A stretch of DNA of 64,000 nt. Origin: Theristus sp. LFF4_11. Lineage: Eukaryota; Nematoda; Chromadorea; Monhysterida; Xyalidae. The number at the start of each line of letters is the position of its first letter. Position 1 is the first letter of the stretch. The notes beneath the pieces are model-generated. The model worked only from the letters and a program-made list of their open reading frames with translations, was not told where the DNA came from and did no database searches. Positions 34,405-51,688 of this stretch are shown in pieces. The stretch covers positions 1-64,000 of the forward strand of contig JASANC010001084.1 of assembly GCA_030248135.1 (NCBI GenBank), in the 5' to 3' direction. The position numbers and the translations under genes were made by a program.

Positions 34405-37400
34405 ATGTTGAACGTGTTCATCGTTTTAATACCTGTTCTGCAACAGTTCGCGGTAGCAGAGGTGCGGATAAGTTCTTTGTTATTATTTGTTCTTTTGTCG
34501 AAACTTTCCAAATTACGTCTATTGCGTCTCCGATACTGTGCGGCCTCTGTTCGAATGAATGTGTATACATTCGCACATTGTACTGTACGTGCAATTTTTT
34601 ACACTTTGATTCCGCAGGAATTGTTCACGTTAACTGCCGCCGAGCTGCGAACGGCCGAGCTGGACTACGAACGAGCGTTCCAGGCGGAAACGGCCGAAGC
34701 GAAAGACGATGTGCAGTACAACCCGGTGCATCCGGCGTCGGCGTCGAAGAACATGGACGCCGCGAAGACAGCAAACCGCGCGCTTTACAATACGCGACAT
34801 TTCGAAGGTGCTCATTTATCAGTCACAGTAAAGCGACTTAACTCAGTCTGAGTTGAAAAGTCCAAATTCCAGACAAGAATTCCCAGTCAGACAGACCGAG
34901 TCACGTTCTTTCACCGTCCACCATCCATCGTTTTCAAAAAAACAAACACACAGGCGACGAATGTCCGGCAAATTGTTTTTGTGACCACGCACACTCACTC
35001 AGAAAAAGTCCTGCAATGAAGCTAACCAAAACAAATAATCTTGGCATGCTTACAATGTGTTTCAAGCAAACTATTTCTTACATTCTCTCTGATAAATTCA
35101 AAAGAATCGCGTTTTTCGTGTACAAACGGGGTTATGACGGGACTTGAAAAATGTTCACTATTTGCTTATATTGGAAAAAATGTGGAATAATTGACAAATA
35201 CGTTGTTCTCGATTTTTCAAGGTGACATTCGCGATTTTGTGCCGCCGACTTCGACCAGCGAAGAGGCGCTCGCAGCATGGCGACACGAGCGATACTGGCT
35301 GCAGTCGCGGCAAACACTGAATGGCACCGTAATACCATACGTCGTACGTCCTGTTTGGTCCTTGCTGCTATAACGTTTGCCTAATGTAACTGTGCGTGTG
35401 TGCCTTTTGCTCTTCTGAATAATGCAGTTTTTCTTTGAAGTTTTGTTATTTTTTCGAAAAGTGAGGAATCGAAATGAAAACGCACGATTGAGTCAAGTAG
35501 TATAGAAAAACTTTACCTGCACACGGCGGCAGCCTAGAGTTCACAACTTTTACAGTTCTGTTATTGAACAACCACAAGACTACACAGTTTCTGACAAACG
35601 GTTGACCAATTTTGCTGCCATTGCCGTTTTTTCGGCGTCTATTTCCAGATGAAAGGAGTCTGGACGAAGGACGATCGTAAACAGCTGGCGATGGTAATTG
35701 TCGAGTTTGTGACGAAAACCTGCATTCGTTTTGAGGGCGCCGATCCGGCAAGACACAAGGACTTTCTCGTTTTCGACTTGGACGCCGACGAGTGCAGTTC
35801 AGCGTGCGTTCGTTTATTCTATCTGAACCATAGAATCAAAATAAATCAAACCATAGCAATAATCAAGGCAAAAGCTTGTGAAAAACCTGCTGAAGTACCT
35901 GGTTTTTTAGAATTGTGCGACAGAAAAAACCACCCCAAAATCAAAGTCGGAGCTGTAGTGTGTTTATATCAACAAAAAAAACCCTGGACCTCATTGATCT
36001 ATTCAGATACGGTCGTCAAGGAGGTCGTCAGTCGATCAAAATTGGGCAGACTGGCTGTATGCCCAACAATCTGCATCATCAGCTGCTGCATGCGCTTGGC
36101 TTCTTCCACGAGCACACGCGAATGGACCGGTGAAAAACTATTCATATACGTGCGGCGTGTCCGTCACGACGATTCACGGCGCTTCTTTCATTTTCGTTTT
36201 TTATTGAAGCATTGAATATTGCAATTAGCAGATTCACGGGAAGTACCGTAAAGTCTTTCATATAAGGTTCCTCCCACTTATAAGACCCCCACCCAAAACT
36301 GGGCAGAGTGACACACGGCGGGAAACCAAAAAATTCAAAATTTTGACTTGGTCAAATGTTACCCCGTTTATAAGGCCCGGAATTCCTAATGTTCAGTTTA
36401 TAAGACCTCCTCCCATTTATAAGGTTGTCACACGAAATTCCACTTTTTTCAGAAATTTTTGATTTTCAAATTTATATAAGGAGACCGCATATGCAAGACT
36501 TTACGGTATTACAGTGCATTACTAATACTTTCAAAGAGTACTACGGTACTTCGTTATTGAACGTTGAACCGCTGCACGTACATTCTGATTGAAAGTTGTC
36601 TTGCAGCGACCGATGGGTGCGCATTGTTAAGAAGCACCTACGACCGGAGATTCGTGACAGTTTCGGTCGAAAGAATCCGTACGCGAGACCGTGCACGCAT
36701 GAATATGATTTTGAATCGGTAGGAGTTGCAGAGATTAGAAAACAAAAAAGCTTTTGGAAACCTCATTTCAACTTCCGGTTTTCCAGTGTTTCTGGTTGGA
36801 GACTTTTTGGGTACTGTTAGACTTGGCGTTCTTTTTTAAATCAGTGTTTCAATCGAATTGGCGAATCGGCATATGTATCTAGAATGATGCACGCATTGAA
36901 GATCTGGTAAGATCTAATTTTTGGTCACTTAACGAACGAATAAGAGGGTGTGAGTAAAGTGACAAAAATGTTATTCGTCAATTGGTTGATCAATAAAATT
37001 GTTTCAAAGCAATTTGTTCCCGGTGATCAGGCTCGCCAATATGACAACACAATTTTGACGGCAACAGGCGACCTCGTGGTCGCGTCGAAATCCGCCGACA
37101 AACAAAAGTCGACCAATTACTTCAAACCGATGAAAGGCCAACGACTGTCCATGTTCGACGTCGTCGACATCAAGCAGATCTACTGTTCCGTTGAGCCGTC
37201 AAACCCGGCGAACAGTTTAGCTGCAAAGCTGCGCAAAATATATCCAGGTTGTTCTGCTCCGCGAAAACCTTATTGTCATTTTTGTGTATCAGCTTGTTCG
37301 GTTTTGTTCTGTTGTTCAAGCACGTTTTGGGATTCCGGTGAGTTTTTTTTGCGTCGAGTGGTTTTCTTGAAATGCCGGCGACTGATGGGGAACCACCAGT

Positions 37401-40400
37401 TCCCGAATGAAATTATTATGTACATATGTACTGTACATATAACATTATGCTTACAGAAATAATAACTGGCAGTCAATTTATTATTCAGTTTAATTGATCT
37501 AACCTGAATCTGATCTAATCCTAACAGACACATTTTCGCGCAGACTGCGGCACGATTGGCACAACGGACAAGCAACGACGACGCCGTCACCGGCGATGGG
37601 GCGGAGTCCGGACGAGCGTGATCGATCACCCGTGGGTCGTTCACGTGCACGTCAGGCAGCCGTCCTTGATGGCGAACAACACGCGCATCGGCACGCTACT
37701 CAGCGGGCGCCACGTGCTGACAGCCGCCAGCGTTCTGTTGACAGCCGCAGCAGCAGTCGGCAGCGGCAACAGCGACTTTCTCGACGCGTCCGACTTGAGC
37801 GTCGTGACGAACCTGTCGAAGCGCTCCTCGATGTCCGTGCATCCGTCGACGAGCATGCACCGTGTGCGCGGCGTTCACGTGCACCCGCGTTTTCGACAGT
37901 CGGCCAATCGCGTCTTCGAGAATGACATCGCCGTTATTGAGTTGAGGTACGGTATGAACTGCCTAAAGCCGCCATGCAGTGCGGCATCTCTATACGCATC
38001 TGATTAGGTCTCGACGCGATCTTCATTTAAGCGTCGTGATGATTCGTAAACAGCAAAAAATGCAACGAATAGAGCAAAAGTCAGGCGCATGCGCCGACAC
38101 CGCAGAATCTTTTTGGATACCGCTACTCTGCATAGGGTCTACACTATTGGAATTTCATTGCACTACTGCTTGTTCGTCAACTGCACTGATCCACAGCATG
38201 TGAATGTGAATACCGTATTACCTCTATTAACCCCCCCCCCAAATTAAACCCCCCCCCCAAAAATAAACCCCACCCCCTCGACAAGTTTCCAAATAATCCC
38301 CCCCCCAAAATAATTCCCCATGGGAGATTATTGAAACCTGTTTGAAACACATACCCAGCGAATTCAGTGGCTGGTTGCAGTGAAAATGATGAAATTGTGC
38401 TACCAAAGGCCCCAAATGGATGAGTTAATGGTAATTTCATTACAAAAGGCTGTTGTAAAAGGAAATTTCTATGTAGAGTAGAAGTTTCTGCGACTTCCTT
38501 CCTGCCATGGAAGGTATTTTTGCCATTTTGCCCACCCCTAAAAATGGTTTCCAAATAACCCCCCCCCCCAAAAAAAATAAAGCCCCCCCCCAAAATAAAC
38601 CCCCACCCCCACCCCCATTAGAGGTAATACGGTACGGTTCGAAGTGCGAAAATTTCAAAAATCAAATCCACTTTCAGCACTTCAGTGAAAAAAAGTAACA
38701 TTTTAGCGACACGGTGGACTTCGGCGGCAGCGGCGTTCGACCGATCTGCTTGCCGATGGAGGACCTGAAACCGGACGAACAGTACGACACGCCGAGACTA
38801 GACAAAGTTGACCGCTGTTCCATGGTTGGATGGGGCAGGCAGATCGGTCAGTGACGCAGCGTTGTATGTACTCGGAAAGACTTCTACGGTTTTTGCGTTG
38901 CGAAGATTTTTTTCTATTTTTTTTATACCCGGGCGAAAAGACCAATCAGTGAGCTCAATTCAAAAGCTGATCAGTCTGAGCGCTACGGCTTACAGTTCGA
39001 GTGTTAAAATTAGTGACGAACCAAAACAAAGCTTCGGGTTTTTCGAGAATAAAAAAACGTTTTCCGAAACTCGATTTCGCACAGGAGGCGATCACTCGGA
39101 CGTACTGATGGAGGCGGAGTTGTCGCTGATGCGCGCACAGGGCTGCCTGAGCATGCTCGGCGCCGCCTACAACCCGAGCACGTCGCTTTGTGTCGGCCAT
39201 TTCAATCCGTTTCAGACGGAGCAGAACGCCTGCAAGGTTGGTGCAAAAGAAAAAAAAACGAAATCGGTGCCAACAAACGGTGCATGGATCTGTATGTGCA
39301 TAATTGGGCGCACACTGAAATTCGTTAAAATCGATAAAACTTTTTATACAGTCGCACTCTAAATTATAGGGAATCAGCGCCGTCGTCGGTGATCCCGTGA
39401 TGCATGCGTTCTGTGCAGAAATTGCTGCGGGGGCGGAGTTGGCTTTGCACAGAAAGCATGCATGCACGTGACCACCAACCAATCAGGTGATTCCCTATAA
39501 TTTAAAGTTCGACTGTAGTTGGTGGTTTTTTGCACGTTTTGCCAAATAGACGCATCCCGCGGTGGTGCGCCCTTTCTCGCTCGTTTCTCAGTTCGATAGA
39601 CACTAGGAATACCACCTGCCCAAAGCGTCTTCTCTAAGAGCAGACTGTATAGTCTGGATAAAACATCAGCGAACTTTGAAAACAGATTCTCATGGAGAGA
39701 AAGAGAGGACGTGTTTCTCAGTCATTTCAAGTTTCTGTTATGAGCCCCTTGAATTTTTTTACCGCATGGATTCTATTAGAATCGAATACACTATCACTAC
39801 CAAACAGAGATTTCTTCTTGAGTTTCTTGAGTTTTCTAAATTGCTATCACGACGAGACAATCGTGTACAAATGTGCGACGTTTTTCAAGGTTTTCATGCA
39901 CCGTGTAGTGTTGATATCTAGAAATTTCTGCAGGGCGATGAAGGGGCACCAGTGATGTGCACTGTGGAACCGGGCGAGCCGACGGTATTGGCAGGCATCA
40001 TCAGCTGGTCGGATAGTTTTGGTGACTACAGGTAAAAGAGGTCAAGTAAAGGTCATTCATGTGAACATGGTGTACAATGTACGTACCGTACTGACTGAAA
40101 GGTACGTGTATTGTGCATTTATTCAAACGTGTCCGAACTAAAATGACGTCATTTGCTTTCAAAACTCCCGTTTGTCTAAGTACAGGCACTAAAATTTCAG
40201 TTTGGTGTGACTGATTCGACATTCACCATTTGTTTACGGGAAGAAATCAGCTAAACGGAAAGTCTGGTTTGCTGTGAACGGCAAGCGCATGTTTTGCGAC
40301 ACATGACGTCATTTCAGTGAGACACGTTTAAAAAAATAGGTCATACACGGACTGGTCAAATTTGTAGTATTAGCTGATTGGTTGGTTACTCACATGTCCG

Positions 40401-41251
40401 GTTCCTTCCACTGCGGAAGAAGACACACTTCTTGGGCTTTCAGCCTTTCGCTCTTTTTTTGCTGTGTTTCGTATTCCAGACACTGTGACGCAAAACCGTG
40501 GTCAGCAGTAAACGTACACCACTACACCGAGTGGTTGGCCTCCATCATTGACACAAACGGTACGAAAACTGTTTTAGCCATGATCATCTTTGAAGACAAA
40601 CAAGCGTGTTTACAGTTTTCAAAAATTTCAAATTTTAAAAACACCGTCACAATATTGTCTGTTTCAAAATCTGCGTTCAAGCGCTGCGCGTGCCGCCGCA
40701 AAGTGACGGAGACCATTGCAGCGGTATGTTGACGTTTTCGACAACAATGATGTGATTCTGTTGGTCGGTGCGATGCGTTTCAATCAATAACGAACGGAAA
40801 CAGTTTTGTTTCTCATGTTGTAGACGCCTCGTTCCGCTCCAATCGTGGTCTGATGTTCAAGGTGTCGCATTTCTACGTCATGGAGCGTATCACTCGTCTT
40901 GTTATGCAACCGAGCGGTGAGCGAAAATTTTTTACCGTCAAAAACCCCTAAATAAACCCCTAAAGTTTGCCACCACCATCACACCATAAAAGCATATGCC
41001 CTAACAATTCTCAAAACACCGCCAAATTGATAATATTTTCTCTATTGTTTTATTGATTTATTGATTGCGTGCGAATGTGCTGCGATTATGGAGCACGTTG
41101 CGTGGCGGCGAACTTCATCGCGTCCCGTCTGCGAATCGGTGCCGGTCACTGCCAGTTGCTCGCGAGATCGCCACAGTGCACCGGCGAACTCAGACAGGGA
41201 TTCGAGGTGCGCCACGAGCCGGCAATCGCATTCGTGTTGCATCAGTGTTGA
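34405..41251 (+). CDS. Secreted astacin-trypsin fusion, both domains catalytically degenerate
   Basis: In-phase exons: 34405-34461, 34618-34807, 35222-35343, 35649-35803, 36007-36129, 36607-36718, 37031-37247, 37544-37946, 38707-38846, 39085-39236, 39934-40031, 40480-40559, optional 40682-40723, 40824-40916, 41094-41251; about 713 aa. Residues 1-19 are a signal peptide. The propeptide has the astacin Asp-switch FEGD (81-84). The astacin domain (~115-325) keeps three zinc His (199, 203, 209: HQLLHALGFFH) but the catalytic Glu is Gln200. The Met-turn SxMHY reads SARQY (253-257). An S1 peptidase domain (326-~590) follows: activation-like RWGG, AAHC replaced by AASV (Ser388), Asp453 kept (NDIAVIEL), VRPICLP, GWG, and GDSGGP replaced by GDEGAP (Glu560). 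The tail is Cys-containing. Inferred role: non-catalytic secreted binding protein, decoy or regulator. The weakest acceptor is the last (TATGGAG). Two separate genes are less likely, since exon 8 has no start or signal peptide. Confidence 0.82.
36244..36508 (-). mobile_element. MITE family B, copy 3 (fusion-gene intron 5)
   Basis: TACCGTAAAGTCTTTCATAT...ATATGCAAGACTTTACGGTA, the reverse complement of the other copies. It lies between the exon with the zinc motif and the next astacin exon. Confidence 0.75.
38211..38634. mobile_element. Poly-C/G MITE family, copy 1 (fusion-gene intron 8)
   Basis: Ends TACCGTATTACCTCTATTA and TTAGAGGTAATACGGTA. Both subterminal regions are C-runs separated by AAATAA or AAAATAA. 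The core contains GTAGAAGTTTCTGCGACTTC and GAAATTGTGCTACCAAAGGC. The same family is at 49245, 49730, 52476 and 62518. Confidence 0.75.
39347..39517. mobile_element. Small palindromic MITE (fusion-gene intron 10)
   Basis: Inverted ends ACAGTCGCACTCTAAATTAT and ATAATTTAAAGTTCGACTGT. The interior includes GATGCATGCGTTCTGTGCAG and its near-complement, so the whole ~170 bp can fold. Confidence 0.6.
40118..40346 (+). mobile_element. MITE family A, copy 3 (fusion-gene intron 11)
   Basis: TTATTCAAACGTGTCCGAAC...GACACGTTTAAAAAAATAGG, closely matching 13268-13496. It ends about 130 bp before the next coding exon. Confidence 0.7.
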
Positions 41252-44900: not shown

Positions 44901-47900
44901 GGCGAAAATGGTGGTGTAAAGAAAACCCCGATAAGTTAAAACGTTGTGACGCAGAAACCATGAACTTCTTCATAGTACACCAAAAGGTCAGGGATTTGAA
45001 ACAATTTTGAGTTTGCACCGAACATATACTTTAACATTTTTAAAACAAACTAAACCACGTGAAAGAGCGTTCAAAATTACATATATTTGGTACAGGTCAC
45101 ATTGGTCAAAACGTTTTTTAAGTGGACTTAATAAAGCAATAAAAGCTTATACTGGCAAAATTAAAAATTTCTCAACCAACATTGTAACGAAACAAACCTC
45201 CAAAGAAAAAACGGTTTGCATATTGTTAAAATGTTTTCTAGACCAGTTTTTTACGGTAAAAATTATGGTGTAACGAAAAACTCTATAAGTTAAAGCGTTG
45301 TGACTGCAGAAATCATAAACTTCTTCGTAGTACACCAACAGCTCTGACATTTGAAGCAATTTTGAGTTTGCACCAAACATATAGTTTAATATTTTTAAAA
45401 CAAACTAAACCATGTGAAAGAGCGTTTAAAATTACATATATTTGGTACAAATCACATTGGTCAAAACGGTTTTTAAGTGGACTTAATAAAGCAATAAAAG
45501 CTTATACTAGCAAAATTAAAAATTTCTCAACCAACAATGTAACGAAAAAAACCTCAAAAGAGGGAGCGGTTTGAATCTTGTAGAAATGTTTTCTAAGCCA
45601 GTTTTTACGGAGAAAATGATGATGTAAAGAAAAACTCTATAAGTTAAAGCGTTGTGACTGCAGAACCCATGAACTTCTTTACGGTACACCAAAAGGTCTG
45701 GGATTTGAAGCAATTTTGTGTTTGCACCAAACATATAGTTTAGTATTTTTTAAAACAAATTAAACCACGTGAAATAGCGTTCAAAATTACATATATTTGG
45801 TACAAATCACAATGGTTAAAACGTTTTTTAAGTAGACTTAATAAAGCAATAAAAGCTTATACTAGCAAAAACATAAATTTCTCAACCAACCTTGCAACAA
45901 AAAAACCTCAAAAGAGGAGACGGTTTGCAACTTGTGAAAATGTTTTCTAGACCAGTTTTTTATTGCAAAAAAGATAGCGAAGAGAAATTTTGGGGCCAAC
46001 TGAACGCTGGGGCATGAAAAGCTAAAAACTGAAATTTTTGAAATTTTTGGACATTAATTTTTACGCATTTTGTTTGTACCAAAATTACGGTTTGAGTTTA
46101 AAAAAAAACTAAATAAGCACATGAAATTCCTTGCAAAATACTACATTTTTCATATTAGCATCAATGTTCGATAACGCTTCTGTGTTGCGTTAAAAGACGT
46201 TGTTTGTCAAAACGCCAAAAATGACGTTTTTCGACGACATACCCTACTTTGGAGACCTGTAGCACCACACCACAAGGGTCTCATTCCAAAAGCGGGCCGG
46301 TTTTTTCTTAGTTGGACCTAAGGGTACCTCCATACCAAATTTGAGCAAAATCTATTTTCGGCTAGGGGCAAAAATGTTCCACCGGTTTGCGGACGGTCTC
46401 TTAAAAGAAAACTCCATGTGTGGCCAAATATGGATTTTTCCAATCCGGATTCCATTTTTGCAACTTGTGCGGGCTCAGAATTCAGCTGGTGAACGTACCT
46501 TCATGTCGGTTTCAGTGGGTCGCTGACGGTTTCCAATTTTATCGCCGCCTTCTTTCAAAGCCGTGATCGTTGGTTTGCCGTTGTTGCTGAAGTAGTTTGT
46601 ACCGTAGTGCATGACTGAGCCATAGTCATATTCGGTGCCTCCGTGAGTGATCTTTGTCTGGTCGTATTTTGTGAATTGACCTGCAAAAAAACAACATTTA
46701 AGAAACTTAAGAACATCCTTTTTATAAACGTTTTCCTATAGTTCCCTGCAAGAAACAACATTTAAAAAAATTAGTTTTGTATTGATAAAAAACTGCTGTT
46801 TTACCTTTGCTGCGTTCATCCATGTTTTCGAAGTTGACCCTAACCCAATCGTCGCGGTCAGTGCGCGCCTGTTCATGGTGGAATCCGAACGCGTGCAGCA
46901 GCTCGTGTGCGATCACACCAGGCGCGTCCAGGCAGCCGGGCGATGAAATGGACACAGGCTGGGAATTGCCTTGTATGCCTGCAATGGTGGAAAGTCTGTG
47001 TGTCTGTGCGTCTGTGTCGGTGTGTGTGTGCGGTCTGTGTGTGTGCGCGGGTGTGTGTGTGTCTGTGTGTGTGTTTGTGTGTCAGTGTGTCAGCGTGTCT
47101 GCGTGTTTGTGTGTCTGTGTGGCTGCGTGTCTGTGTGTCAGTGTGCCTGTGTGTCTGCGTGTCTGTGTGTCTGTGTGTCTGTGTGTCTGTTTGTTTGTGT
47201 ATGTGTGCTTGTGTGTCTGTGTGTCTGTTTGTCTGTGTGTCTGTGTGTCTGTGTGTCTGTTTGTTTGTGTATGTGTGCTTGTGTGTCTGTGTGTCTGTTT
47301 GTCTGTGTGTCTGTGTGTCTGTGTGTCTGTTTGTTTGTGTATGTGTGCTTGTGTGTCTGTGTGTCTGTTTGTCTGTGTGTTTGTGTGACAATGTGTCTGT
47401 GTGTTTGCGTGTCAATGTGTGTGTGTCTGTGTGTTTGTGTGTCAATGTGTCAATGTGTCAGTGTGTTTGTGTGTTTTTGTGTCAGTGTGCTAGTGTGTCT
47501 GTGTGTCTTTTTGTTTGTGTATGTGTGCTTGTGTGTCTGTGTGTCTGTTTGTCTGTGTGTCTGTGTGTCTGTTTGTTTGTGTATGTGTGTTTGTGTGTCA
47601 GTGTGTCAGTGTGTCAGCGTGTCTGCGTGTTTGTGTGTCTGTGTGGCTGCGTGTCTGTGTGTCAGTGTGTCTGTGTGTCTGCGTGTCTGTGTGTCTGTGT
47701 GTCTGTGTGTCTGTTTGTTTGTGTATGTGTGCTTGTGTGTCTGTGTGTCTGTTTTGTCTGTGTGTCTGTGTGTCTGTGTGTCTGTTTGTTTGTGTATGTG
47801 TGCTTGTGTGTCTGTGTGTCTGTTTGTCTGTGTGTCTGTTCTGTGTGTCTGTTTGTTTGTGTATGTGTGCTTGTGTGTCTGTGTGTCTGTTTGTCTGTGT

Positions 47901-50790
47901 GTTTGTGTGACAATGTGTCTGTGTGTTTGCGTGTCAATGTGTGTGTGTCTGTGTGTTTGTGTGTCAATGTGTCTGTGTGTTTGTGTGTTTATGTGTCAGT
48001 GTGCTAGTGTGTCTGTGTGTCTGTTTGTTTGTGTATGTGTGCTTGTGTGTCTGTGTCTGCGTCGGTGTGTGGGTCTGCGTCTGTCTGTGTCTGTCTGCAT
48101 CTGTCCGCGTGTGTGATTCAAAAGATCCATGCATTCATTGTTCATCAGTGCACATTGCTAAAATACAAACAATCGTTTATGAGTTTTAATTTACCTCCTT
48201 TGACGTAACCCACGTACGAGTAGCAGCCACCATCTTGAATCACGTTTATCCACCAGGTGTCTGAATCCGTTTTCGGTCGGATCTTGACGCACGAGCGAGC
48301 CATCAAATCATCGGTTGCAATTTTCCATTGTTTCTGGCTGTAAGCTCATTTACAGAAGTTTGAAAAAAACAATAGGTGGCCAGCCACCGCAGCTGCAACG
48401 CACTGGTATAAAATCGTGGACAAAACATTCAATGGCGACAGTTCAACCATTTGAGTGGAATGTTTATCACATGCACAAACAATGCCAATACAAATCTATT
48501 TTGGTCAACGACAGTTGCCTTTCAGTAGCTGGCAACATTCAATTCAACAACCGCTCACACTCTAATGAAACAATTTTTAATGCCAAGCTACCGCACTATA
48601 CAGCATGATTTCAAACGTCCCTGTTGTTTTAGACATAAAAACGCACTTCTGCTATGTCGGTTGCTGTGTGATTGATCTCAGCTATCATTAGATTTCTATC
48701 AGTTTTTGAAACTACGTTCTGATATTAGTCTCAGTGTTTTTCGAACCTGCCGCAGTTTTCATTGTATCTGACCGTGGCCCTTTTCTCTGCCAGTACATGC
48801 AATTTTGTGAACTTACAAGAGCTCATCGTTCTTGAGACTGTCGTCAATGACGTACGGCATCGTAGCATCCGGCCATCTGTATCTTTCGTCTCGCAAGCCT
48901 GCACCCGCTCCCGTATCACCACCCATGATTGCATCCAACTGCTCGGGTGTAAGCATCATGTCGCCTTGGAAAACTTCAGCGTCACCTTTGTTCGTATTCG
49001 TTGTTTCATCCGTCTGCAGTGTTCGCAAATAGCTAGTTTGATTGATATTTGGCGATTGTTATTTAAGGATTTCGTGAGCTAACAACGTTTTTATTTAAAA
49101 TGCAGGGTGAGCCAAAAAAGATTTCAACTTCAAAATGCTCTCACTGGCTTGTGCTGAGATGTTACGAGCTAAAAATTAGAACACTTTGGAAAGTTTTGCT
49201 GACCAGAATTATTTCTGGATATGTTGCCCCTATCACTCACTACATACCGTATTACCTCTATTAAACCCCCCCCCCCCCAAAATTAACCCCCCCCCCCCCA
49301 AAAATAAACCCCCACCCCCTCGACAAGTTTCCAAATAATCCCCCCCCAAAAATAAACCCCCATGGGGGTTTATTAGAAACCTGTTTGAAACACATACCTA
49401 GCGAATTCAGTGGCTGAATGCAGTGACATTGGTGAAATTGTGCTACCAAAGGCCCCAAAGGGATGAGTTAGTGGTAATTTCATTACAAAAGGCTGTTACA
49501 AAAGGAAATCTCTGTGAAAAGTAGAAGTTTCTGCGACTTCCTTCCTGCCATGGAAAGTATTTTTGCCATTTTGCTCACCCCTAAAAATGGTTTCCAAATA
49601 AACCCCCCCCAAAAATAATCCCCCCCCCAAAAATAAACCCCCACCCCCAGAAGTCGCTGAAGAAATAAACCCCCATGGGGGTTTATTAGAGGTAATACGG
49701 TACATCTGAAAATCTTGAATACCGTATTACCCCCAATAAACCCCCATGGGGGATTAATACGTCAGCGACTTTTAGGGGTGAGGGTTTATTGGTGGGGGGG
49801 GGGATTGTTGGTGGGGGGGGGGGTTTATTTACAAAAAAAATTCTAGGGGTGGGGGTTTGTTGAAAAATGGCAAAAATACATTGCATAGCAGGCAAGAAAG
49901 TCGCAGAAACTTCTACTCTACATAGAAATTTCCTTTTATAACAGCCTTTTGTAATGAAATTACTATTAACTCACCCATTTGAGGCCTTTGGTAGCACAAT
50001 TTCATCATTTTCACTGCAACCAGCCACTGAATTCGCTGGGGTATGTGTTTCAAACAGGTCTCCAATAATCCCCCATGGGGGATTATTTGTGGGGGGGGGG
50101 GGATTATTCGGAAACTGGTCGGGGGGGGGGGTGGGTTTTATTGGTGGGGGGGGGATTAATGGTGGGGGGTTTAATGGGGGTAATACGGTATACATGAAAA
50201 ATCAACAAATGTTTTGGAATGCAAACGGTTGGTTTAGCTGTAAAAAATACCAAATGATGAACTTTGGTGACAACAATTAATGTTTTTTAAATGAAGTATT
50301 GTAAAACTGTAAAAAATTGTTAATAAACGGAATATGATTCAATTAATGCTGTTGATTTGGAAGATGCGATTTCACAAAAAAGACGACACAAAACTACCGT
50401 AACCTCATAATGAAAGATCTAATAGATGCACATGATGCGCATCAACGTATTTGTCAAGCGCATTTAAAAAAATCATCGTAAATAATTTTTATGAATGTGC
50501 ATCTTTGACTGTTAATGCAACGAATAGAAAGCGTTTGCATTTATCGCATCAGCTGAATTAACACAAATAGAGACAGTCGGATTGCACTGGTGGATGCGTT
50601 TTCAAGGGAATGCATTAAAAGCAAATCTTTATCTATTACGTCATGAAGTTTGAGTTCCCTGTGATGCAGCTTAGTGGACTTTTTATTTTATCTTAGAACA
50701 ACTTACATCGCCTGATGGCTCCTGGTTGGTTTTACGCACATGACGAGCCGTGACAAGTCCAGCGAACAACAGAAACAGAAGTAAACGCAT
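41986..50790 (-). CDS. Astacin zinc metalloprotease with intact catalytic residues, 354 aa
   Basis: Seven exons join in phase: 50790-50707 (donor GTAAGT), 49013-48817, 48337-48195, 46978-46805, 46680-46499, 42387-42240, 42122-41986. The signal peptide is [15 protein letters not shown]. The propeptide has the Asp switch FQGD (43-46). The catalytic domain starts near MPYVID and has Cys pairs ([20 protein letters not shown]), the full zinc signature [19 protein letters not shown] (His166, Glu167, His170, His176) and Met-turn SVMHY (Met223, Tyr225). It closes with RLLYKCP. A ~38-residue Gly/Glu linker (GGGE/GGE repeats, 272-309) leads to a 44-residue tail with 8 Cys (CASCC...CKC...CSC). Nematode astacins (NAS family) act in hatching, moulting, digestion or host invasion; which applies is unknown. 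It is convergent with the degenerate fusion gene. AATAAA lies just after the stop. Confidence 0.9.
42524..46402. mobile_element. 3.9-kb foldback element in astacin intron 5
   Basis: The two halves are inverted copies of one another with the turn near 44463. Ends are AAGAGACCGTCCG and CGGACGGTCTCTT. Each arm has a unique outer part (CCCTTGTGGTGTGGCGCTAC..., GGTATGTCGTCGAAAAACGT) and inner ~330-bp subrepeats (GTTTGGTGCAAAC, AAGCTTTTATTGCTTTATTA, GAACGCTCTTTCACGTGG), about three per arm. No transposase is visible. It fills almost all of the 4.1-kb intron. A diverged outer-arm fragment occurs at 54130-54290. Confidence 0.8.
46983..48115. repeat. GT-rich minisatellite in astacin intron 3
   Basis: About 1.1 kb of GTGTGTCT/GTGTGTTT units. 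Higher-order blocks repeat, for example GTCAGCGTGTCTGCGTGTTT at about 47089 and 47605, and ACAATGTGTCTGTGTGTTTG at about 47389 and 47909. ORFs of repeating Cys-Val-Ser or Thr-His-Arg are artefacts. It fills intron 3 (46979-48194). Confidence 0.9.
49103..49200 (+). mobile_element. Solo mariner-like terminus (astacin intron 1)
   Basis: TGCAGGGTGAGCCAAAAAAG followed by CTCACTGGCTTGTGCTGAGA resembles the terminal repeat of the element at 11236. No second end was found. Confidence 0.4.
49245..49702. mobile_element. Poly-C/G MITE family, copy 2 (astacin intron 1)
   Basis: TACCGTATTACCTCTATTAA...TTAGAGGTAATACGGTA with C-run subtermini and the family core (CTTCCTTCCTGCCATGGAAA). Only 27 bp separate it from the next copy. 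Confidence 0.75.
49730..50190. mobile_element. Poly-C/G MITE family, copy 3 (astacin intron 1)
   Basis: TACCGTATTACCCCCAATAA...GGGGGTAATACGGTA. The core is inverted relative to copy 2, so the two lie head to head. Confidence 0.75.
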
Positions 50791-51527: not shown

Positions 51528-51680
51528 AAGAGCTCATCGTTCTTGAGACTGTCGTCAATGACGAACGGCATCGTAGCATCTGGCCATCTGTATCGTTCAT
51601 CTCGCAAGCCTGCACCCGCGCCCGTATCACCACCCATGATTGCATCCAACTGCTCGGGTGTAAGCATCATGTCGTCTTGA
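51528..51680 (-). pseudogene. Duplicated fragment of astacin exon 2
   Basis: About 150 bp nearly identical to 48817-48970, including the donor. It reads [19 protein letters not shown]... and [12 protein letters not shown] (Tyr to Phe). The front of the exon, with the FQGD switch and the acceptor, is missing, and the fragment joins a second copy of the gene's 5' flank. No other exon of a second gene follows, so it is a broken duplicate. Confidence 0.75.
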
Positions 51681-51688
51681 AGCAACCG

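What the first reader, a model, noticed from the sequence alone, without database searches (positions are those of the whole stretch)
34405..41251. Single secreted gene joining an astacin domain to a trypsin-like domain
Fourteen or fifteen exons read in one phase-consistent chain from a signal peptide through a propeptide and astacin domain into an S1 peptidase domain. The junction exon (37031-37247) ends in phase 1 and the S1 exon (37544) supplies the two missing bases of an Asp codon just before Cys-Gly. Astacins usually carry EGF, CUB, ShK or TSP domains C-terminally; I know of no standard M12A-S1 architecture.
Basis: partly seen in the sequence, partly recalled or inferred. Interest (0 to 1): 0.88.

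Follow-up and report, generated by a model that had tools for sequence, protein, structure and literature searches.

The report
Nematode astacin–trypsin fusion, both halves inactive
A roundworm gene joins two protein-cutting-enzyme domains in one secreted protein, but both have lost key catalytic residues, so it probably binds or regulates something rather than cutting it.

Summary
A 15-exon, phase-consistent chain (34405-41251) encodes 713 residues: signal peptide, prodomain, astacin domain (Pfam E 6.5e-31), S1 domain (E 1.6e-22), tail. The junction is supported by a paralog on contig C943, 40% identical, with the same order, phase-1 junction and polybasic linker in one open chain. The astacin motif is HQLLH (Glu to Gln) and its Met-turn SARQY; S1 has no His57 (Ser) and Glu for Ser195. 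The paralog keeps HELMH but also lacks His57; the only matching Ser195 exon found, on C811, reads Glu. Three sister astacins showed no S1 match in the stretches held; one carries a TSP1-like domain, pointing to exon shuffling. Astacin-trypsin combinations are in print for cnidarians and helminths, so the architecture itself is not new; the live-dead to dead-dead series in one genome appears to be a new variant. Best reading: a secreted double pseudoprotease that works by binding. Expression, processing and function are untested.

The parts
34405..34461 (+). exon 1, start codon and signal peptide (MLNVFIVLIPVLQQFAVAE)
   Evidence: signal peptide judged by eye, no predictor run
34618..34807 (+). 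exon 2, prodomain
35222..35343 (+). exon 3, end of prodomain and start of astacin module; FEGDI spans 34801-34807/35222-35229
   Evidence: FXGDI prodomain motif from PMC9848320 (passage)
35649..35803 (+). exon 4, astacin module
36007..36129 (+). exon 5, astacin zinc-motif exon HQLLHALGFFHEHTRMDR; HQLLH at 36077-36091 (Gln codon 36080-36082)
36607..36718 (+). exon 6, astacin module, ends YDFES
37031..37247 (+). exon 7, end of astacin module; ARQY (37031-37042) stands in the Met-turn position; ends in phase 1
37544..37946 (+). exon 8, Cys-Gly, polybasic linker RRRRHRR (37576-37596) and first half of S1 module; Ser at the His57 position (37729-37731)
38707..38846 (+). exon 9, S1 module
39085..39236 (+). 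exon 10, S1 module
39934..40031 (+). exon 11, S1 module; GDEGAP (39934-39951), Glu at the Ser195 position
40480..40559 (+). exon 12, end of S1 module
40682..40723 (+). exon 13, linker
40824..40916 (+). exon 14, tail
41094..41251 (+). exon 15, Cys-containing tail and stop codon; 5' boundary uncertain

Best explanation
One nematode gene encodes a secreted protein made of a prodomain, an astacin (M12A) fold, a polybasic linker, an S1 fold and a Cys-containing tail. The S1 module most likely entered the C-terminal slot of a small astacin subfamily by phase-1 exon shuffling; a sister gene carries a TSP1-like module in that slot. The S1 module is a serine protease homolog without His57 and Ser195. 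In this copy the astacin module has also lost its catalytic Glu and the Met-turn Met, while keeping the three zinc-ligand His, the Met-turn Tyr and the fold cysteines. The protein is therefore most likely a double pseudoprotease that acts by binding: as a decoy, a regulator of active astacin paralogs, or a ligand in the manner of HGF. It is probably cut at RRRRHRR by a furin-like convertase and may stay together through a Cys327-Cys474 disulfide. Shown from sequence: architecture, single reading frame, residue changes, paralog. Inferred: expression, secretion, cleavage, disulfides, zinc binding and binding function.
For: 15-exon open chain with Pfam Astacin and Trypsin above cut-off. Paralog C943:78538-81809, one open chain of 8 exons over both domains, 39.6% identity over 338 aligned codons, codon-position differences 0.47/0.36/0.65, as expected for conserved coding. 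Same junction phase and an RRRR[HK]R..WGG-type linker in both. Alignment to solved astacins places HQLLH on HEXXH and SARQY on SLMHY/SIMHY; alignment to solved S1 chains places GDEGAP on GDSGGP. His57: a genomic S1 (L060) aligns RHVLTAGHC to RHVLTAASV and C943 reads RHVLTSASV. Of 13 distinct astacin zinc motifs in held DNA, 12 have Glu and this gene alone has Gln. Around the best 30 of 82 S1 matches in the genome: 26 [ST]A[AGS]HC and 19 GDSG[GA] matches, no LT[AS]AS[VC] and no GDEGA. Sister C2760 has a TSP1-like domain that can be spliced in phase 1 to its astacin domain. Window, C943, C2760 and C2844 form a clade with 98/96 support.
Against: No transcript or protein evidence. The half S1 of C943 alone scores 14.1 bits against PF00089, below the 20.6 cut-off, and the C811 fragment has no Trypsin match; their S1 identity rests on similarity to the window protein (46% at E 3.4e-20; 55% at E 7.4e-17). 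The link C943-C811 is inferred from contig ends. HMMER's alignment to enteropeptidase sets a different stretch (LLTAAAAV) on TAAHC; it has no His either. The window row has a long branch (3.84 against 1.56 for C943), the tool warns about it, its highest identity is to C2844 (38%) and not to C943, and the order inside the clade is open; relaxed constraint would fit too. The C943 chain needs one GC donor. The last exon's acceptor is doubtful. None of the 18, 33 and 31 public-protein hits carried both domains, so no other species supports the fusion in these tools.
Confidence: 0.74

Rival explanations
1. Two adjacent genes, an astacin gene ending in the 37248-37543 interval and a separate S1 gene starting there.
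For: Reading through 37247 reaches a stop at 37460 inside the intron; 5 of 6 short ATG frames in the interval have a phase-1 GT.
Against: The S1 frame has a stop at 37522 and no Met until 41 codons after Cys327, beyond the polybasic site. The 6 ATG frames encode at most 25 residues and none looks like a signal peptide (by eye). No AATAAA/ATTAAA there. The C943 paralog repeats order and junction phase, and the translation of its junction exon has no Met.
Confidence: 0.08
2. A pseudogene: a dead astacin-S1 gene whose catalytic residues have drifted.
For: Catalytic residues lost in both modules; long branch; doubtful acceptor of the last exon.
Against: 713 codons without a stop against 27 and 19 stops in the other frames, GC3 0.69, a GT-AG model throughout. 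The astacin cysteines C148, C172, C192, C305 and S1 cysteines for four of five classical disulfides are kept (read by eye from the sequence; numbering recalled). The His57 loss is shared with C943 and the Ser195 change with C811, so these losses are old and did not end the reading frame.
Confidence: 0.15
3. An active two-protease enzyme, as the first title suggests.
For: Both Pfam domains above cut-off; zinc-ligand His and Asp102 kept.
Against: HQLLH, SARQY, no His57, Glu for Ser195.
Confidence: 0.03
4. Assembly chimera of an astacin contig and an S1 contig.
For: The assembly is fragmented (3744 contigs).
Against: An independent contig carries a 40% identical copy with the same junction.
Confidence: 0.02

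Closest known systems
Astacins (M12A), nematode NAS type
   Same: Signal peptide, FXGDI prodomain, three zinc His, family Glu after the third His, four cysteines, PF01400 above cut-off.
   Different: Catalytic Glu is Gln, Met-turn SIMHY is SARQY, C-terminal module is S1 instead of EGF/CUB/ShK/TSP1.
Trypsin-Astacin proteins of Cnidaria (Babonis et al. 2019, PMC6767649, passages) and helminth astacins with trypsin-like domains (Gomis-Ruth & Stocker 2023, PMC9848320, section 2.7, citing Martin-Galiano & Sotillo 2022, not held)
   Same: Both domain families in one protein; in the helminth case the extra domains lie downstream of the astacin domain.
   Different: The passages read do not state the catalytic state of those proteins; homology to this gene could not be tested.
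Serine protease homologs (SPHs) and HGF/MSP (recalled)
   Same: S1 fold without a complete triad, with an N-terminal linker carrying the Cys that pairs to the S1 body.
   Different: Joined to a metalloprotease fold; polybasic RRRRHRRWGG instead of R-IVGG; no kringles or clip domain found.
Astacin sisters in the same genome (C2760, C2844, C1807)
   Same: C2760 and C2844 in the same clade (C1807 not in the tree, near-identical to C2844 by eye); reading leaves the consensus after DR of the zinc motif, as at the window's intron; VHHY/VHHF Met-turn.
   Different: HEIMH intact; C2760 has a TSP1-like domain; no match to the window's S1 in the stretches held.

Membership tests
Astacin peptidase (M12A) | Sequence match to PF01400 over the whole domain | tested here: met
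   E 6.5e-31, profile 5-189 of 189
Astacin peptidase (M12A) | HEXXHXXGXXH with catalytic Glu | tested here: not met
   HQLLHALGFFH; three His kept, Glu to Gln
Astacin peptidase (M12A) | SIMHY Met-turn | tested here: not met
   SARQY in register; only Ser and Tyr kept
Astacin peptidase (M12A) | FXGDI prodomain motif | tested here: met
   FEGDI at residues 81-85 (motif)
S1A serine peptidase | Sequence match to PF00089 over the whole domain | tested here: met
   E 1.6e-22, profile 2-219 of 220
S1A serine peptidase | His57-Asp102-Ser195 triad | tested here: not met
   Ser388 at His57 (one search sets an Ala there instead), Asp kept in NDIAVIEL, Glu for Ser195 in GDEGAP; numbering recalled
S1A serine peptidase | R-IVGG activation site | tested here: not met
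   RRRRHRRWGG; consensus recalled
Serine protease homolog (SPH) | S1 fold lacking one or more triad residues | tested here: met
   Two of three triad residues replaced
Serine protease homolog (SPH) | No proteolytic activity, regulatory role | not testable with these tools
   Needs recombinant protein
Two-chain convertase-processed secreted protein | Cleavage at a polybasic site in vivo | not testable with these tools
   Site present and conserved in the paralog; cleavage not tested

The most novel reading that the evidence does not exclude
A secreted double pseudoprotease, one polypeptide with two unrelated protease folds both stripped of catalysis, derived from a live-astacin/dead-S1 ancestor like its paralog and kept under selection as a convertase-processed binding protein that regulates the large active astacin family of this worm or acts as an HGF-like ligand.
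Probability: 0.4. Interest if true: 0.65.

Novelty: new variant of a known kind. Interest (0 to 1): 0.48.

Why it matters
Pseudoproteases are known in many families, and a review describes helminth astacins with many extra domains, trypsin-like ones included. A chain with two different protease folds, both dead, beside a paralog whose astacin half still has its zinc motif, gives a natural series for asking how proteases become binding proteins. It also shows the C-terminal module slot of nematode astacins taking an S1 domain, probably through a phase-1 intron. The genome's astacin family is large (155 exon-level matches, a lower bound), so a non-catalytic relative could be a regulator.

Tried and rejected
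Exon 36845-36906 (CFNRIGESAYVSRMMHALKIW) was tried as the Met-turn exon and rejected: it breaks the frame, and splicing 36718 to 37031 aligns SARQY with SIMHY without it. An enumeration of GT/GC-AG chains between exons 5 and 7 was too permissive (1103 chains) to decide anything.

COX1 as a marker of the phylum: 0 matches in the assembly. The PF01060 (TTR-52) family matched 8 places; that it is restricted to nematodes is recalled.

Further astacin-S1 neighbours: 105 contigs with astacin matches (copied by hand from the listed rows) against 45 contigs with PF00089 matches share none. This test is weak: the listing is cut, matching is exon by exon, and the degenerate S1 exons of C695, C943 and C811 are not in the PF00089 list either.

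The S1 donor was not found: 9 places match the window S1 protein at E <= 0.001, seven of them the gene itself, plus C811 and C943. Weak DUF316 (nematode trypsin-6-like) matches lie below that family's cut-off (E 0.012 window; E 0.0021 C943). The tail gave no Pfam match. Martin-Galiano & Sotillo 2022 was not among the papers listed and was seen only as a citation.

Full report
What is there. The window lies on contig C695 of a 159 Mb assembly. Eight matches to the TTR-52 family and the six best hits of the first protein search being nematode astacins indicate a nematode; that TTR-52 is restricted to nematodes is recalled. From 34405 to 41251 a chain of 15 exons with GT-AG introns, boundaries chosen by hand, reads in one frame into a 713-residue protein. 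The other frames of the joined sequence contain 27 and 19 stops; exons have 57% GC and GC3 0.69, introns 32-44% GC. Pfam finds Astacin at 118-306 (E 6.5e-31) and Trypsin at 344-608 (E 1.6e-22), both over their cut-offs. The prodomain carries FEGDI, the FXGDI motif that PMC9848320 gives for animal astacin prodomains (passage).

The junction. In the S1 frame the nearest upstream stop is at 37522 and the first Met is 41 codons after the Cys, past the polybasic linker; the intron has no AATAAA or ATTAAA. A paralog on C943 repeats the arrangement: eight exons (78538-81809, one with a GC donor) read in one frame through both domains, with the same phase-1 junction and the linker KRRRRKRWGG against the window's RRRRHRRWGG. 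Identity is 39.6% over 338 aligned codons, with differences of 0.47, 0.36 and 0.65 at codon positions 1, 2 and 3. Pieces matching the next two S1 exons follow on C943, and the contig then ends before the Ser195 exon. An exon 55% identical to the window's lies on C811, with its upstream side towards that contig's end. I infer that this is the rest of the C943 gene. Taken alone, the C943 half S1 domain scores below the Pfam cut-off (14.1 against 20.6 bits) and the C811 fragment has no Trypsin match; they are assigned by similarity to the window protein.

In the window copy the zinc motif is HQLLHALGFFH: the catalytic Glu is Gln. Among 13 distinct astacin motifs in the DNA I held, 12 have Glu. 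The Met-turn is SARQY, in register with SLMHY and SIMHY of solved astacins. The S1 module has Ser at the His57 position: RHVLTAASV aligns with RHVLTAGHC of another S1 gene of the genome (L060) and with RHVLTSASV of C943. HMMER's alignment to enteropeptidase chose a nearby stretch, LLTAAAAV, instead; it has no His either. Asp102 is kept (NDIAVIEL) and Ser195 is Glu (GDEGAP on GDSGGP). C943 keeps HELMH with SVHHY as Met-turn, and the C811 exon reads GDEGAG. Around the best 30 of 82 S1 matches of the genome, in partly overlapping loci, I found 26 [ST]A[AGS]HC and 19 GDSG[GA] matches and none of the degenerate forms. Cysteines for the two astacin disulfides and for four of five classical S1 disulfides are present; the missing pair is 42-58, beside the lost His57 (read by eye from the sequence; numbering recalled).

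Origin. Astacin domains of C695, C943, C2760 and C2844 form a clade with 98/96 support. The window row is a long branch (3.84 against 1.56 for C943), its highest identity is to C2844 (38%), the order inside the clade is open and the tool warns that long branches may join falsely. In all four the reading leaves the consensus after the DR of the zinc motif, whereas the nine other motifs continue DRD; for the window and C943 this is the modelled intron. C2760 is followed by a TSP1-like domain, read by eye, that can be spliced in phase 1 to its astacin domain. C2760, C2844 and C1807 showed no match to the window's S1 in the stretches held (2.9 kb downstream for C2844). This fits an S1 module inserted once into a phase-1 slot, followed by loss of astacin catalysis in the window lineage; the tree does not prove the order.

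Mechanism. Most likely a secreted, convertase-cleaved, non-catalytic binding protein. Architecture and residue losses are shown from sequence; processing, zinc binding and function are inferred.

Prior work. Babonis et al. 2019 (PMC6767649; [quoted passage not shown] Gomis-Ruth & Stocker 2023 (PMC9848320; passages, section 2.7) state that helminth astacins carry over 100 extra domains downstream of the catalytic domain, including trypsin-like serine peptidases, citing Martin-Galiano & Sotillo 2022, which I could not read. The main text of the C. elegans astacin paper PMC2824743 has 0 occurrences of trypsin. The review PMC11266112 mentions astacins once, as metzincins. Among the papers listed by seven searches (2 of 2, 15 of 78, 10 of 11, 12 of 17, 3 of 3, 10 of 113 and 3 of 3) no title or abstract start describes an inactive astacin-trypsin fusion; most of those papers were not opened. 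In the protein collection none of 18, 33 and 31 hits carried both domains; in the first two only the candidates sharing most words were scored.

Limits. No expression data. The last exon's 5' boundary is uncertain: CVRMCCDYG lies in frame upstream of 41094 without an AG acceptor before it (sequence), while C811 has a similar CCD stretch (by eye). Relaxed constraint cannot be excluded.

Noticed in passing
window 46499-46982 and 48825-49001, minus strand: A separate astacin gene with intact HELLH and SVMHY, converging on the fusion gene; its C-terminal part was not traced.
   Followed up: partly
window 51539-51685, minus strand: A second, very similar copy of that gene's prodomain exon, suggesting a tandem duplication.
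   Followed up: no
window about 47000-48100: A long ACACAG-rich simple repeat inside the minus-strand astacin gene.
   Followed up: no
window 41057-41093: In-frame CVRMCCDYG upstream of the last exon has no AG acceptor; either a non-canonical splice site or a lost piece of the tail domain.
   Followed up: partly
C1807 (L036) and C2844 (L034): Nearly identical astacin genes on two contigs, perhaps alleles or a recent duplication.
   Followed up: no
C943, C2760, C2844, C1807: Met-turn Met replaced by His (VHHY/VHHF) in astacins whose HEXXH is intact.
   Followed up: partly
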